Of a stretch of DNA of 64,000 nucleotides, positions 31,320 to 40,550 are shown piece by piece. The stretch is from Lachnospiraceae bacterium (lineage in GTDB: Bacteria; Bacillota; Clostridia; Lachnospirales; Lachnospiraceae): positions 1-64,000 of the forward strand of contig JAAWAV010000021.1 of the NCBI GenBank assembly GCA_022792335.1, written 5' to 3'. Numbering within the stretch: position 1 is the first letter of the stretch; every line of letters begins with the position of its first letter. A program made the position numbers and the translations under genes. The notes beneath the pieces are model-generated. The model searched no databases. It was not told the DNA's origin and saw nothing but the letters and a program-made list of their open reading frames with translations.

Positions 31320-32606
31320 ATTTCAATCCACGCTCCCGCCAAGGGAGCGACTCTGAAATTCTAATGGCGTATATAAGTTTACAAATTTCAATCCACGCTC
31401 CCGCGGAGGGAGCGACATTTTATACGATGAATCAAGTGCGATGTTGCACAATTTCAATCCACGCTCCCGCGAAGGGAGCGACGAACCTTTTCAGTGATGA
31501 ATGTAATAAGGTTCCAATTTCAATCCACGCTCCCGCGAAGGGAGCGACATGGATTTACCGACTACGAGTCGGATAGCATTGAGATTTCACTCCACGCTCC
31601 CGCGAAGGGAGCGACGGTGGCAATTGGTCTTAGATAACAGTATAAGCAAATTTCAATCCACGCTCCCGCGACGGGAGCGACGTCAATCGACTTTTCAAAT
31701 GCTTGCACCCATTACGATTTCAATCCACGCTCCCGCGAAGGGAGCGACAGGGTTCGTTTTGAGTGAGGATAAGAACATGCAGATTTCAATCCACGCTCCC
31801 GCGAAGGGAGCGACCGGTGGAAACTGTGGATGTAACGGTTGCTAGTGATTTCAATCCACGCTCCCGCGAAGGGAGCGACCGTCTCGGATTGACTGGAACC
31901 GTGGTGAGGCCAATTTCAATCCACGCTCCCGCGAAGGGAGCGACGAGAAAATGCTGCCATTATTACAGTAGTAAAGATTTCAATCCACGCTCCCGCGAAG
32001 GGAGCGACAAAGTTTGTTCAATTTGTTCGTTTTTTTATGGTAATTTCAATCCACGCTCCCGCGAAGGGAGCGACTATTTGAGGGTGTCAAAATTTGTATG
32101 GTCTACTGATTTCAATCCACGCTCCCGCGAAGGGAGCGACGACAAACAGCCGGGGTACTTCATGGAGCAGTCTCAATTTCAATCCACGCTCTCGCGAAGG
32201 GAGCGACGCAGAAAAAGCGTGAAATGCAGCGGAAAGCAGAGATTTCAATCCACGCTCCCGCGAAGGGAGCGACCGCGAAGCTGCTTGTAAGATACCTGTC
32301 CGATGTAATTTCAATCCACGCTCCCGCGAAGGGAGCGACGTTGCAGTGCCGCCGACATGTGATAGACCCACGCAATTTCAATCCACGCTCCCGCGAAGGG
32401 AGCGACGCAGGTGGTACACTGATTGCGTATATTATCGGAATTTCAATCCACTCTCCAGCGAAGGGAGCGACAATGTGGTCAAGGACAAAACGCTGGTTGC
32501 CGGTAGATTTCAATCCACGCTCCCGCGAAGGGAGCGACTAGGCAGCCTTGTTGGGTCTGTTCTTGGCGTAATCGATTTCAATCCACGCTCCCGCGAAGGG
32601 AGCGAC
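31320..32606 (-). CRISPR. Type I-C CRISPR array, 20 repeats / 19 spacers; crRNA-sense repeat GTCGCTCCCTTCGCGGGAGCGTGGATTGAAAT
   Basis: 32-bp repeats starting at 31320, 31385, 31451, 31517, 31584, 31650, 31717, 31783, 31848, 31913, 31977, 32043, 32109, 32176, 32242, 32308, 32375, 32440, 32507, 32575; spacers 32-36 bp. Confidence 0.99.
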
Positions 32607-32785: not shown

Positions 32786-33076
32786 CTACAGAAACAAAGG
32801 AGCTTTCATATCCACGCTTTCTTTCACGCCTATATGCTCGACTTTATTTTTATAATTATTTCCAAGGTAATAAAAGCGCAGGCTGTCTGTCCTGGTGTCA
32901 ATGATTTCCTCCAAGATCGCTTTTACCTCCCTGCATTTGGCCGCATCCATCTCACATTCAAAGACGGAGTTTTGGACTCTCGTACCATAATTGACGCATT
33001 GCTTTGCCACCTGCCGCAGCCGCTTTTTCCCTGCTGCTGTTTCTGTATTGACGTCATAAGTGATCAATACCAACAT
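32786..33076 (-). CDS. cas2: CRISPR-associated endonuclease Cas2 (type I-C)
   Basis: MLVLITYDVNTETAAGKKRLRQVAKQC. Confidence 0.95.
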   Translation of the reverse strand: MLVLITYDVNTETAAGKKRLRQVAKQCVNYGTRVQNSVFECEMDAAKCREVKAILEEIIDTRTDSLRFYYLGNNYKNKVEHIGVKESVDMKAPLFL

Positions 33077-34116: not shown

Positions 34117-34799
34117 TCTTCATCCTCCTTCACCCGTCTGGAAATATATTCTTTTGCCGATCTCTTTTTCATTAACTGGGGCAGGCAAAGATCTTTCAGC
34201 GAACAGGCATTGCAGGCTTTCGTTCTCTTTACCATCGGCGTATGCTTCCGCTCATAATACTGATGCATCTCCCGAAAGGCATCTTTAACCCGCCTCCGGA
34301 TCTCTTCGCCCAGTGGCACCTCGATCCGCCGCCTGATCTCCCCGTAGAATAGATATCCTTTCCTGATCTCACATCCGAGCATTTCCTCCAGGCACATGGC
34401 CTGGGCCGCCATCTGGAGGATGTCCGTTTCCTCCTCCTTTGGCTGACCTTTCTTATATTCTACCGGATATACCAGATATCTGCCCTCCCGTCCCCGCAAA
34501 GGAATCCCGTCTCCATCTGTCCGGTGAAATTCAACGATGTCGCAGACACCGTTTGTACCAAGGGTTCTGGAAAACACGGGCATCCCCCTGGAAATCAGGA
34601 TATCTCCCCTTTTTTCCGTGGAATAACCGTCGTGGGCTTTTTTATGGAACAGCTTTCCCTCCACAGTTCTCAGATTCTCTTCCCACTGCTGTTCCAAATG
34701 GATCAATGCCCACTGCCTTCTGCAGAATAAAAAATGTTGGATGCCGGAGAGCATCAAATAATCCTCTTCCTCATATCCATTCAGTTCTTCCGAATACAT
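34113..34799 (-). CDS. cas4: CRISPR-associated exonuclease Cas4
   Basis: LSGIQHFLFCRRQWALIHLE; VEYKKG; C-terminal Cys cluster. Confidence 0.96.
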   Translation of the reverse strand: MYSEELNGYEEEDYLMLSGIQHFLFCRRQWALIHLEQQWEENLRTVEGKLFHKKAHDGYSTEKRGDILISRGMPVFSRTLGTNGVCDIVEFHRTDGDGIPLRGREGRYLVYPVEYKKGQPKEEETDILQMAAQAMCLEEMLGCEIRKGYLFYGEIRRRIEVPLGEEIRRRVKDAFREMHQYYERKHTPMVKRTKACNACSLKDLCLPQLMKKRSAKEYISRRVKEDED

Positions 34800-35671
34800 G
34801 TCACTCCTTCCGGAATCTGTTCTTCACAGACGGTCACTTCATAATCTCCATAGCATCGGGGCTGCATTTCGGCTTTCCTCTTTTTCACCTTCACGGCGTC
34901 AAACAATTTATGGGCCGGCGCATCGCCAAGCTCTGAATGATGTTTGAAAATGATCAGCTCCCGGACTGCCATTTTTCCTCTGGCCGCCGAACGGTCATGT
35001 TCAAACATATTTAAAATCGCTTCCCACAAAAGCTCCGTATCCGCTTCACTGAATCCTGTCACCTTCCTTGCCAGATTGGCAGACACAAATCCCTCCGCCC
35101 GATACAATCCGTAGGGGACGATCTCCTTTCTTCCCATCTCCGTTTTCTTTTTCTCCGCATCCTTTTCCGTAGTAATGGCAACTCTCGTTATGGTCAGGCT
35201 CTGTGGCACGATGGGATCCACTGACCGGGCAAAACCAAACTGTACCGGCCCCCTCACCTGCCCGCAGTTTAAATTGGCTTTGACGAAGGTGGTCATGACT
35301 GCCCCAAAGGCTCGGATATCGAAAAATCGGGAGCACATAAAGTCCCGGATCCTCCGGTCCAGCTCCGGGTCGTCCTTTTTTAACGCCGGGATCTTTTTTT
35401 CATCGATGGATAATTCTGCAAAAGCCCCGGCATCCTTGACGTTTAAAGGCGTTCCTTCTTTAATATAAATCTGATATCCCGGATCTTCTTCCTTCACAGT
35501 CTCCACATAGTTGCGGATCTTCCGTTTCAGACAGACGTCGGTTACGATCCCATGCCCCGTATCCAGGTCCACTCTGGGCGCATTTCCATTGTCCGGGTCT
35601 CCATTGGGATTTCCGTTTTCCACGTCGAACAATACCACAAAATCATATCTGTTTCTGATTGCTTCTCCCAT
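34781..35671 (-). CDS. cas7c: Type I-C Cas7
   Basis: RYDFVVLFDVENGNPNGDPDNGNAPRVD. Confidence 0.96.
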   Translation of the reverse strand: MGEAIRNRYDFVVLFDVENGNPNGDPDNGNAPRVDLDTGHGIVTDVCLKRKIRNYVETVKEEDPGYQIYIKEGTPLNVKDAGAFAELSIDEKKIPALKKDDPELDRRIRDFMCSRFFDIRAFGAVMTTFVKANLNCGQVRGPVQFGFARSVDPIVPQSLTITRVAITTEKDAEKKKTEMGRKEIVPYGLYRAEGFVSANLARKVTGFSEADTELLWEAILNMFEHDRSAARGKMAVRELIIFKHHSELGDAPAHKLFDAVKVKKRKAEMQPRCYGDYEVTVCEEQIPEGVTCIRKN

Positions 35672-38101: not shown

Positions 38102-40234
38102 TTACACAAAAATTGCAGCGCCTTCCTCCTCCGAAAAGGTAAGGCCGGCACGTTTATCATACAGTTTCTCATTTATTAAAACTGCCGTTCCCTGAATCAG
38201 CTCTATATCTCCCAACCGCAAGAGTTCCCGGTAATGAGGTTCGTAGACATTCACGCTGTATCTCCCCAATTTTCGGAAAAGCCCCCCGCCTGTCTGCCCG
38301 CCCCGAAGCTTTCGGACCAGTTCTTTTCCCTCTTCCTTCCAGGGAATATAAACCGTATCCGTATCCTCATTGATCAGCCGGAAGGTTTTCGCAATCTCCC
38401 GGAACGCATACTGCTCCACCTTCTCCATGATCTTTTTTCGATCCAGGTTTTCCTTCCCCCGAAGCTCCCTCCAGAAGCGGAAATAGGCTTCAATCGCCTC
38501 CAGGCTGTCCCATTCCTTATACTCCTCCATAATACAGCGAGCCACCTTCACCTGCTGACTGATGGAATCCGGAAGCCTGCCGCCCTCCAGGGAGAACACC
38601 TCCACGATGCTTTCCTCCGGTTTCCCCATTCCGTTCCGGTTACACCGGCCCGCCGCCTGCAAGATCGAGTCCAGCCCGGCCTGTTCCCTGAGCACATACT
38701 GGAAGTCCAGATCCACGCCCGCTTCCACCAGGGAGGTGGCGATCACAAGGCAGGGAAGGTTTTCTTCAAGCCGCCTTTTAATCTCAGAAAGTACTTCTTC
38801 CCTGTGAGCCGGGACCATCATCGTTGTCAGATGAAAACACTCTTCCCGTCTTTCCAACAGTTCATACAGCCTCCTTGCTGTCCGCTTCGTATTGACAATG
38901 CAGAGCGCCTGTCTGTGGGACTTCAGTTTTTCCGCAATTTTTTCCAGTGGCAACGCCCCTCCATTCACGAACGTGACCCGTTTCAGCCGTTCAAACTGCT
39001 TTTTCGTGTCTTTCGTAATCTCCTCCGGCTCTGTCCCCTTTGGAAATGTAATTGCCGGCTGAGTCGCCGTGCAAAGAACCTGAGTTGCCCGAAAAAGAGC
39101 AGATAGTTCCTCCATGGCATGGATACAGGGTGTCCAGTAAGCGACCGGAAGCATCTGTACCTCGTCATAAATGATCACGCTGTTCGCGATATTATGGAGT
39201 TTTCTGCACCTGGAAGATTTATTGTGAAACAGAGATTCAAAGAACTGAACTGCCGTCGTTACAACAATCGGCATGTCCCAGTTTTCACTGGCCAGTTGGA
39301 ACGGACTCCACTCCTCCTCAGAACCTGCTTCATAAATCACATTGGAATGATGCTCCAACACATTTTCTTCCCCCAGAATCTCCCGGAATTTCTTTGCCGT
39401 CTGCTCAATGATATTCATATAAGGGATCACATAGATCACTCTGTCCAGTCCCTGAGATACCCCGTGGCGTAACGCCCAGTATAGGCTGCTCACAGTTTTT
39501 CCGCCTCCCGTGGGCACTGTCAGTGTGTAAATTCCCCGCTTCGCTTCCTGCCCATGAGCCGCCACAGTCTGGAGAAGCTCCGAACGCATTCCGTTTATGC
39601 CTGTTTTCCCCATCAGCCAGCCCTGTTCTTTCAACCAGGCTTCCAGCCTCCCCAGCAGTGTTTCCAGACATTCGCCCGTTCCCCTTGACGCTGGTTTTCC
39701 ATTCATAAATTCTTCTGTATTTAAAAAATCAGCGTCCACCAGAGACGAATACAAAAATTTCGTCTCCATGTATCTATCAAAAGTCGTCTGAGAAGGATCC
39801 ATTTCCGGTACATCATGGATATGTAGAAAAGGACAGAGCTCCTCCCATCCGCTGTAGTCCGGAATTTTCCCGGACTGTCCTTTTTTTAAACGTCCCCGGA
39901 CTGTTCCGTCGTCGGTATCCATCTGCCCGCCAAAATCCAACAAGCCGCTGTGATGTCCCATTATACACATAGCCGCCGTCATCTGTCTCCTTTTAAACGC
40001 CTCCAGGGCTCCGGCTGTGGAATGATCACATCTTTCTGTGGACTTCGGATTCCGAAGCCTGGCCTGAAATTCCTCGCTGCATTTCCCAAGATCATGGAAA
40101 CCTCCCGTCAGTTCTCCCAAAGGCTGCTTTCCGAATGCGGCTGCAAATTCCCCCGCTAACTTCGCCGTCTCCTGCAGATGCTCCAAAACAGTCTGTTCTC
40201 TGTCCTCTGCTTTGTGTGCCAGATAAGTTTTCAT
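38102..40234 (-). CDS. cas3: Cas3 helicase-nuclease
   Basis: HD (GGFHDLGKCS), PTGGGKTVSSLYWAL, IIYDEVQMLP. Confidence 0.97.
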   Translation of the reverse strand: MKTYLAHKAEDREQTVLEHLQETAKLAGEFAAAFGKQPLGELTGGFHDLGKCSEEFQARLRNPKSTERCDHSTAGALEAFKRRQMTAAMCIMGHHSGLLDFGGQMDTDDGTVRGRLKKGQSGKIPDYSGWEELCPFLHIHDVPEMDPSQTTFDRYMETKFLYSSLVDADFLNTEEFMNGKPASRGTGECLETLLGRLEAWLKEQGWLMGKTGINGMRSELLQTVAAHGQEAKRGIYTLTVPTGGGKTVSSLYWALRHGVSQGLDRVIYVIPYMNIIEQTAKKFREILGEENVLEHHSNVIYEAGSEEEWSPFQLASENWDMPIVVTTAVQFFESLFHNKSSRCRKLHNIANSVIIYDEVQMLPVAYWTPCIHAMEELSALFRATQVLCTATQPAITFPKGTEPEEITKDTKKQFERLKRVTFVNGGALPLEKIAEKLKSHRQALCIVNTKRTARRLYELLERREECFHLTTMMVPAHREEVLSEIKRRLEENLPCLVIATSLVEAGVDLDFQYVLREQAGLDSILQAAGRCNRNGMGKPEESIVEVFSLEGGRLPDSISQQVKVARCIMEEYKEWDSLEAIEAYFRFWRELRGKENLDRKKIMEKVEQYAFREIAKTFRLINEDTDTVYIPWKEEGKELVRKLRGGQTGGGLFRKLGRYSVNVYEPHYRELLRLGDIELIQGTAVLINEKLYDKRAGLTFSEEEGAAIFV

Positions 40235-40272: not shown

Positions 40273-40289
40273 CTTGTCAATCGACGGTA
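40273..40289. repeat. Solo copy of the TACCGTCGMTTGACAAG unit in the cas3 5' region
   Basis: CTTGTCAATCGACGGTA. Confidence 0.8.
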
Positions 40290-40294
40290 GCTGA

Positions 40295-40323
40295 ATGATA
40301 ACATTTTTACATTTAAATTTCAA
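40295..40323 (-). promoter_or_regulatory. Predicted cas operon promoter
   Basis: Minus strand TTGAAA (40323-40318) -N17- TATCAT (40300-40295). Confidence 0.65.
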
Positions 40324-40335
40324 TTAACTTATAAT
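40306..40335 (+). promoter_or_regulatory. Predicted divergent promoter
   Basis: TTTACA-N18-TATAAT. Confidence 0.55.
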
Positions 40336-40356
40336 ATATAAGATATCATATCTGGA
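40319..40356 (+). promoter_or_regulatory. Candidate operator: TTC PAM + partial protospacer for the crRNA-like RNA at 40438
   Basis: TTC|AATTAACTTATAA vs guide AATTATCTTATTA: mismatches only at positions 6 and 12 in first 13. Confidence 0.7.
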
Positions 40357-40402
40357 AATAAAAGGCAAGCAGAATTTGTCGAAATAAATATTTTTTTTAA
40401 CT

Positions 40403-40431
40403 TTGCTTCTCTCTTCTTTCTGTGTTATGAT
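40403..40431 (+). promoter_or_regulatory. Promoter of crRNA-like RNA
   Basis: TTGCTT-N17-TATGAT, predicted +1 at about 40438. Confidence 0.65.
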
Positions 40432-40437
40432 AGCTTT

Positions 40438-40550
40438 GTCGTGGAAAAAATATCAGATCCATTTTCCATGTGGATTGAAATAATTATCTTATTAAGCGAG
40501 TGCTTTCCAGCCATGCATCTTTCATGCCGGACCGGACGCACTCTTTTTTT
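40438..40550 (+). ncRNA. crRNA-like regulatory RNA (CreA/CreR-like) with diverged type I-C repeat and partial-match guide
   Basis: GT[CGTGGAAAA..TTTTCCATG]TGGATTGAAAT (40438-40481), guide from 40482, terminator GAGTGC..GCACTCTTTTTTT (40498-40550). Confidence 0.7.

What the first reader, a model, noticed from the sequence alone, without database searches (positions are those of the whole stretch)
40319..40356. The crRNA-like guide has a PAM-flanked seed match in the cas3 promoter, with mismatches only at flipped-out positions
SEEN: guide from 40482 = AATTATCTTATTAAGCG...; site at 40322 = AATTAACTTATAATATA..., preceded by TTC (40319-40321). Positions 1-5, 7-11 and 13 match; 6 and 12 do not; after 13 the match is random. 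KNOWN: TTC is the usual I-C PAM, and in type I Cascade every sixth crRNA base is flipped out and not read. The site overlaps the -35 of the predicted cas promoter (minus TTGAAA-N17-TATCAT) and the -10 of a divergent + strand promoter. INFERENCE: seed-only pairing allows Cascade binding without full interference, so cas transcription is repressed when Cascade is abundant and released if Cascade is lost or inhibited. My rough chance estimate for PAM plus 11 read positions in about 300 positions is ~1e-6, but AT-richness and post hoc search weaken this considerably.
Basis: partly seen in the sequence, partly recalled or inferred. Interest (0 to 1): 0.95.

Follow-up and report, generated by a model that had tools for sequence, protein, structure and literature searches.

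The report
RNA-guided self-repression of CRISPR genes
Next to a type I-C CRISPR-Cas operon in a Lachnospiraceae-type genome lies a small crRNA-like RNA gene whose guide matches the operon's own promoter, and in relatives guide and promoter change together or are lost together, so the immune system most likely uses its own targeting complex to keep its own genes in check.

Summary
Site 40319-40334 is TTC plus a match to the guide (from 40482) at positions 1-5, 7-11 and 13, with mismatches at 6 and 12. It is the only TTC-flanked 10/10 match in the 2.67-Mb genome; shuffles of the 203-bp region give it in 8 of 60,000. Across the window and four orthologous loci, guide and operator carry the same changes at positions 3, 7, 10 and 11, while 6 and 12 stay mismatched. 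Four further type I-C loci or locus families have unrelated guides, each matching a YTC-flanked site upstream of its own cas3; guides against foreign upstream regions gave no 10/10 match in 1,211 trials. Two relatives lack both RNA and operator. The RNA has a promoter, a degenerate repeat whose hairpin is kept by compensatory changes, a 16-nt guide and an intrinsic terminator. This is a CreR (cas-regulating RNA), a kind published for types I-B, I-E and V-A; here type I-C, single-repeat, terminator-capped. Repression itself is inferred, not measured.

The parts
40319..40321 (+). PAM (TTC) of the operator
   Evidence: Sequence; TTC in W, L145, L146, L117, L151, L011, L125 and L139 pairs, CTC in L169
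40322..40334 (+). Operator seed: matches the guide at 1-5, 7-11, 13 (a 34-nt protospacer would run to 40355)
   Evidence: covariation in orthologs
40340..40368 (-). Conserved cas promoter: -35 TTGCCT 40368-40363, N17, -10 TATCTT 40345-40340
   Evidence: Same -35/N17/-10 arrangement at the equivalent place in L145, L146, L116, L147, L117, L151; consensus reading, not mapped
40295..40323 (-).
   Evidence: Consensus match; no room for it between operator and cas3 in L145, L117, L151
40403..40431 (+). Promoter of the crRNA-like RNA: TTGCTT-N17-TATGAT, TG before the -10
   Evidence: Position; aligned and kept in L145 and L146
40438..40481 (+). Degenerate CRISPR repeat (psi-R): GTC + 9-bp stem with 13-nt loop + handle GTGGATTGAAAT identical to the array repeat's 3' end
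   Evidence: Fold; three stem pairs with compensatory double changes in 4 orthologs, 97% of cells paired against 25-72% for slid versions
40482..40497 (+). Guide, 16 nt before the terminator stem
40498..40550 (+). Intrinsic terminator: GAGTGC...GCACTC followed by T7, in place of a second repeat
   Evidence: Fold; stem kept in relatives, GAGTGT/ACACTC in L117 and L151
38102..40234 (-). cas3
   Evidence: PADLOC Cas3c E=1.5e-213; NCBIfam TIGR01587 and TIGR01596
37404..38084 (-). cas5c (in type I-C the enzyme that processes crRNA)
   Evidence: TIGR01876; role from PMC11127173
35674..37407 (-). cas8c
   Evidence: TIGR01863; PADLOC Cas8c
34781..35671 (-). cas7c
   Evidence: TIGR02589
34113..34799 (-). 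cas4
   Evidence: TIGR00372
33085..34116 (-). cas1
   Evidence: TIGR03640 type I-C Cas1
32786..33073 (-). cas2
   Evidence: TIGR01573
31320..32606 (-). CRISPR array, 20 repeats GTCGCTCCCTTCGCGGGAGCGTGGATTGAAAT

Best explanation
A CreR-type cas-regulating RNA for a type I-C system. The RNA gene at 40438-40550 is transcribed divergently from the cas operon. Cas5c probably trims it at the degenerate repeat to give the normal type I-C 5' handle followed by a 16-nt guide capped by the terminator hairpin. Cascade carrying it finds the TTC-flanked operator between the RNA gene and cas3 and pairs at the read positions of the first two six-base segments, with positions 6 and 12 not read. The pairing is too short for a full R-loop and Cas3 attack, so the complex only sits over the start site and -10 of the cas promoter and blocks transcription. 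Cas expression would then rise when Cascade is scarce, occupied by ordinary crRNAs or blocked by anti-CRISPR proteins. Shown: the sequences, the covariation, the co-loss, the conserved hairpin and the complete I-C operon. Inferred: transcription of the RNA, its processing, Cascade loading, repression, and the response to crRNA load or anti-CRISPRs (by analogy with published CreR).
For: Exact match and PAM, unique in the genome. Orthologs W, L145, L146, L117, L151: 49 of 50 read positions match; paired guide/operator changes at positions 3, 7, 10, 11; permuting operators among loci reaches this in 2 of 120, i.e. only the true pairing and the swap of two identical seeds. By parsimony on the cas3 tree that is at least five paired changes. 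Unrelated guides with their own operators in L011 and near-identical loci, L125, L139 and L169, the last with a different handle, GTGAGTAGAAAT, equal to its own array repeat. Foreign guide x upstream region: 0 of 1,211 reach 10/10, 2 reach 9/10. Position 12 matches in 0 of 9 loci and position 6 in 2 of 9, against 8-9 of 9 at every other position from 1 to 11; 1-5 and 7-11 were selected by the scan, 6 and 12 were not scored. L116 and L147 lack the RNA and their best operator match is 5-6 of 10; they fall on separate branches of the tree. Stem covariation. Complete I-C operon.
Against: No transcript, binding or reporter data. All five W-type loci come from two genera, so the number of independent events is small. 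L117 has one read-position mismatch (5), L011 one (1). The operator's place relative to the cas promoter varies: over -10 and start site in the W type, just upstream of or over the -35 in L011, L125 and L169, so the mode of repression may differ. In L139 the operator lies about 500 bp from cas3. The PAM of this very system was not established: four spacers had no exact match in IMG/VR.
Confidence: 0.9

Rival explanations
1. CreTA/CrePA-like module: the RNA represses a toxin (RNA or small protein) whose promoter lies at the operator, with cas genes only nearby, so that losing Cascade is punished.
For: Same RNA architecture. In L146 a 32-aa ORF, hydrophobic by eye, with a ribosome-binding site, lies between operator and cas3. 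In the window a + strand promoter-like site TTTACA-N18-TATAAT overlaps the operator.
Against: No equivalent peptide ORF in W, L145, L117 or L151. The + strand promoter is not kept in relatives. The only gene shared downstream of the operator is cas3. The peptide matches no Pfam family and NCBIfam only at E=0.056.
Confidence: 0.06
2. Decayed remnant of an old CRISPR array or orphan repeat with no present function; the operator match is an accident or fossil.
For: A single degenerate repeat. The same element has been deleted in two relatives.
Against: A decaying remnant would not keep paired changes between guide and operator, a hairpin with compensatory changes, a promoter and a terminator. The RNA gene and its operator disappear together.
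Confidence: 0.02
3. The RNA mainly senses or controls something else (for example its own transcription, or other genes in trans), with cas repression secondary.
For: In L011 the operator lies between the divergent RNA and cas promoters, so Cascade there could affect both (sequence; geometry). Three other sites in the genome match more loosely, with only TC required and the first guide base free.
Against: With the full PAM and all ten read positions, the cas promoter is the only site in the genome. In the window the operator is about 70-80 bp from the RNA promoter.
Confidence: 0.05

Closest known systems
CreR, cas-regulating RNAs (Liu et al. 2023, Cell Host Microbe 31:1481; not held, read through the reviews PMC12737573 and PMC13131331)
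   Same: crRNA-like RNA beside cas, degenerate repeat, partial match to the cas promoter, effector-mediated autorepression (here inferred), expected relief by crRNA load and anti-CRISPRs
   Different: PMC13131331 names types I-B, I-E and V-A; this is I-C, where Cas5 rather than Cas6 processes crRNA, with one repeat, a 16-nt guide and an intrinsic terminator instead of a second repeat. Whether the original paper lists I-C predictions could not be checked
CreTA / CreA antitoxin RNAs (PMC9458426, PMC10097628)
   Same: One or two degenerate repeats, partial guide, TTC PAM in haloarchaeal I-B, 11-bp seed in archaeal cases; in the I-F CreA the 6th base is among those not paired
   Different: Target is a toxin promoter; here it is the cas promoter and no toxin was found in the window
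Computationally predicted standalone-repeat regulatory RNAs (Shmakov et al. 2023, NAR; title found in reference lists; content from memory)
   Same: Standalone repeats with guides partly complementary to cas promoters
   Different: Not held here; whether type I-C loci of this clade are listed is unknown
Racr RNA anti-CRISPRs (PMC10651486)
   Same: Solitary repeat-like RNA
   Different: Phage-encoded inhibitors; this RNA is host-encoded beside cas, matches a chromosomal operator, and has no match in the phage collection

Membership tests
CreR | Located with the cas operon it regulates | tested here: met
   About 200 bp upstream of and divergent from cas3 of a complete I-C operon
CreR | Degenerate repeat that keeps the effector-binding 3' handle | tested here: met
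   GTGGATTGAAAT kept; hairpin kept by covariation with an enlarged loop
CreR | Guide partly complementary to a PAM-flanked site at the cas promoter | tested here: met
CreR | Guide-operator pairing under selection | tested here: met
   Paired changes and unrelated pairs
CreR | RNA expressed and processed, effector-dependent repression of cas | not testable with these tools
   No expression data
CreR | Relief by crRNA load or anti-CRISPR proteins | not testable with these tools
   Expected by analogy only (PMC12737573)
CreTA / CrePA | A toxin gene under the repressed promoter | tested here: not met
   No toxin RNA or ORF conserved among the orthologs; L146 peptide unexplained
Type I-C CRISPR-Cas | cas3, cas5c, cas8c, cas7c, cas4, cas1, cas2 and an array | tested here: met

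The most novel reading that the evidence does not exclude
A distinct, recurrent form of RNA-guided cas autorepression in type I-C systems of Clostridia: one repeat, a guide cut short by an intrinsic terminator so that it can pair only over about two to three six-base segments, reinvented or rewritten with unrelated guides in several lineages and lost together with its operator; in some lineages (L146) it also controls a small membrane-like peptide placed between operator and cas3, turning the autorepressor into an alarm.
Probability: 0.25. Interest if true: 0.7.

Novelty: new member of a known kind. Interest (0 to 1): 0.55.

Why it matters
It extends RNA-guided self-repression of CRISPR systems to type I-C, one of the commonest subtypes, with natural covariation data that separate read from unread guide positions. 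That makes the pairing rule for repression without cleavage directly testable. It also predicts that anti-CRISPRs blocking I-C Cascade should switch cas expression on.

Tried and rejected
Rfam scan of 31-41 kb: only chance-level matches, no known RNA family. PAM from protospacers: four spacers searched exactly in IMG/VR, none found, so TTC rests on published I-C PAMs (for example PMC8406640) and on the operators themselves. Looser repeat-agnostic scan: hits in 13 of 240 shuffled regions, so single weak hits there (L116, L121, L119, L109, L045, L070, L084 and the extra ones in L005 and L117) were discarded; only pairs whose guide follows a repeat-type handle like that of the locus's own array were kept. 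My first reading of L011 as needing a 33-nt repeat was a miscount (it stands uncorrected in notebook entry 1); it fits the 32-nt repeat with a mismatch at position 1. Most distant cas3 loci gave no pairs. A second GTGGATTGAAAT at C18:15063 has no convincing target. A family search repeated from another centre gave the same sample. The Cell Host Microbe, NAR 2023 and Mol Cell 2023 papers are not held. The 32-aa peptide was too short for the homology search. MAFFT of the whole intergenic region misaligned L151 (wrong strand end given) and is used only for the close relatives.

Full report
WHAT IS THERE. The window lies on contig C44 of a 2.67-Mb draft genome whose nearest named relatives are Lachnospiraceae MAGs. 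It carries a complete type I-C CRISPR-Cas locus on the minus strand: cas3 (38102-40234), cas5c, cas8c, cas7c, cas4, cas1, cas2, then an array of 20 repeats (31320-32606). Upstream of cas3, on the plus strand, is a small RNA gene: -35 TTGCTT (40403-40408), N17, -10 TATGAT (40426-40431); a degenerate repeat (40438-40481); a guide (40482-40497); an intrinsic terminator GAGTGC...GCACTC-T7 (40498-40550). The degenerate repeat keeps the 12-nt handle GTGGATTGAAAT of the array repeat. That handle occurs only twice in the genome outside the array.

THE OBSERVATION. Guide AATTATCTTATTAAGC and site TTC-AATTAACTTATAATATA agree at 1-5, 7-11 and 13 and differ at 6 and 12. In 60,000 dinucleotide shuffles of the 203-bp region between cas3 and the repeat, a TTC-flanked 10/10 match on either strand appeared 8 times and an 11/11 match once. 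In the 2.67-Mb genome the full pattern occurs once, at this site.

COVARIATION. Upstream regions of cas3 were collected from genome and metagenome searches: 139 distinct regions. Four orthologous loci carry the RNA: L145 (=L013), L146 (=L005), L151 and L117, with cas3 84 to 62% identical. Guides and operators over positions 1-11: window AATTATCTTAT / AATTAACTTAT; L145 same; L146 AACTATCTTAC / AACTAACTTAC; L117 AATTATTTTAT / AATTTATTTAT; L151 AACTACTTTGT / AACTAATTTGT. Positions 3, 7, 10 and 11 differ between loci and change in guide and operator alike. Position 6 is always guide T or C against operator A. Position 12 is always mismatched. The cas3 tree groups the window, L145, L146, L116 and L147, with L117 and L151 as sister; by parsimony (my reading) this needs at least five paired changes. 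The single exception at a read position is L117 position 5.

CO-LOSS. L116 and L147 belong to the same five-member group but have no such RNA. In L116 the RNA promoter region is joined directly to the remains of the terminator. Their best PAM-flanked match to the window or L146 guide is 5-6 of 10. L116 is sister to L146 and L147 branches elsewhere (support for the L147 fork is moderate, 84/83), so these are most simply two losses, each with loss of the operator.

INDEPENDENT PAIRS. With unrelated guides: L011 (and near-identical L041-L043) TTAGAATAGGATATGTA / TTC-ATAGATTAGGAAATGTA; L125 ATAATAGTGAGCATTAA / TTC-ATAATAGTGAGTATTAA; L139 TACAATATAATCTATAT / TTC-TACAATATAATATATAA; L169 TTAGTGATTGTTATTTC / CTC-TTAGTAATTGTAATTAA. 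In L169 the handle is GTGAGTAGAAAT, which is that system's own array repeat end. Over the nine distinct loci, positions 2-4 and 7-11 match in 9 of 9, positions 1 and 5 in 8, position 6 in 2, position 12 in 0. The scan required at least 9 of the 10 read positions, so their high score is partly by construction; 6 and 12 were not scored, so their freedom is a result. As a control, the same guides against unrelated upstream regions gave 0 of 1,211 with 10/10 and 2 with 9/10.

THE RNA FOLD. In four orthologs the degenerate repeat has a 9-bp stem in the same place as the array repeat's stem but with a larger loop; three pairs show compensatory double changes, 97% of cells pair, against 25-72% for slid partners. 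The sample is four sequences and the three double changes separate the two genera, so they may be few events. Folded alone, the whole RNA's minimum-energy structure pairs the repeat differently, although the repeat on its own forms this stem; protein binding may decide.

PROMOTER. Six relatives share with the window a -35/N17/-10 on the cas strand (window: TTGCCT 40368-40363, TATCTT 40345-40340; L151: TTGATA-N17-TATGAT). The operator's seed lies at its predicted start site, and a full 34-nt protospacer footprint would cover the -10. In the window the longer leader contains one end of a repeated element with about 50 copies in the genome. In L011, L125 and L169 the operator lies just upstream of or across the -35 of a cas-directed promoter.

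MECHANISM. In class 1 complexes every sixth guide base is flipped out, and in type I-C Cas5 processes the crRNA (PMC11127173) and binds its 5' handle (PMC7684278). A guide of 16 nt before a terminator hairpin, matching over two segments, fits binding without full R-loop formation and therefore repression rather than cleavage. This last step is inference from general type I knowledge.

WHAT IS KNOWN. CreR RNAs that mediate autorepression of cas genes through partial promoter complementarity are published for types I-B, I-E and V-A (PMC13131331; also PMC12737573, which describes relief by crRNA load and anti-CRISPRs). Related CreA RNAs have one or two degenerate repeats (PMC9458426), and in the I-F case the 6th, 11th and 18th guide bases do not pair (PMC10097628). 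The present case is the same kind, in type I-C. The original CreR paper and the 2023 NAR survey are not held, so whether this I-C clade was already predicted there is unknown.

VERDICT. The feature is real and under selection; autorepression is very likely; the principle is known. Interest 0.55.

Noticed in passing
L146 (G406:C27), about 200 bp upstream of cas3, between operator and cas3: A 32-aa ORF MEIFISLLVSVLGGVACHYVIKWLDDGGKSNN with a good ribosome-binding site, hydrophobic N-terminal half, under the CreR-controlled promoter; by eye it resembles small membrane peptides of type I toxin-antitoxin systems but has no confident family match.
   Followed up: partly
window 40273-40289: One end of a repeated element (CTTGTCAANCGACGGTA, about 50 copies in the genome, several as inverted pairs about 30-260 bp apart, MITE-like) sits in the cas3 leader and probably explains its extra length.
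   Followed up: partly
window 31320-32606: All 19 spacers (and the base after the last repeat) begin with C or T; nearly so in L179 but not in L178. Cause unknown; the CreR guide begins with A.
   Followed up: partly
G000:C18:15063 (L001:1501-1512): A second GTGGATTGAAAT outside the array, preceded by a possible hairpin and near a tmRNA-like sequence; chance expectation is about 0.3 and no clear target was found.
   Followed up: partly
L177 / L145 (G405:C1): The degenerate repeat carries a 16-nt tandem duplication of the handle region (CCATGTAATTGAAATCCATGTGGATTGAAAT).
   Followed up: no
L125 upstream of cas3: Here the RNA gene lies inside the cas3 leader, antisense to it, downstream of the cas promoter, and the guide-operator match is 17 of 18.
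   Followed up: partly
L139 upstream of cas3: Between operator and cas3 lies a fragment that reads like a PD-(D/E)XK nuclease domain (by eye, not searched).
   Followed up: no
window 40370-40403: The stretch TTTGTCGAAATAAATATTTTTTTTAACTTT is strongly conserved even in L116, which lost the RNA; possibly an upstream element of the cas promoter or a protein site.
   Followed up: no
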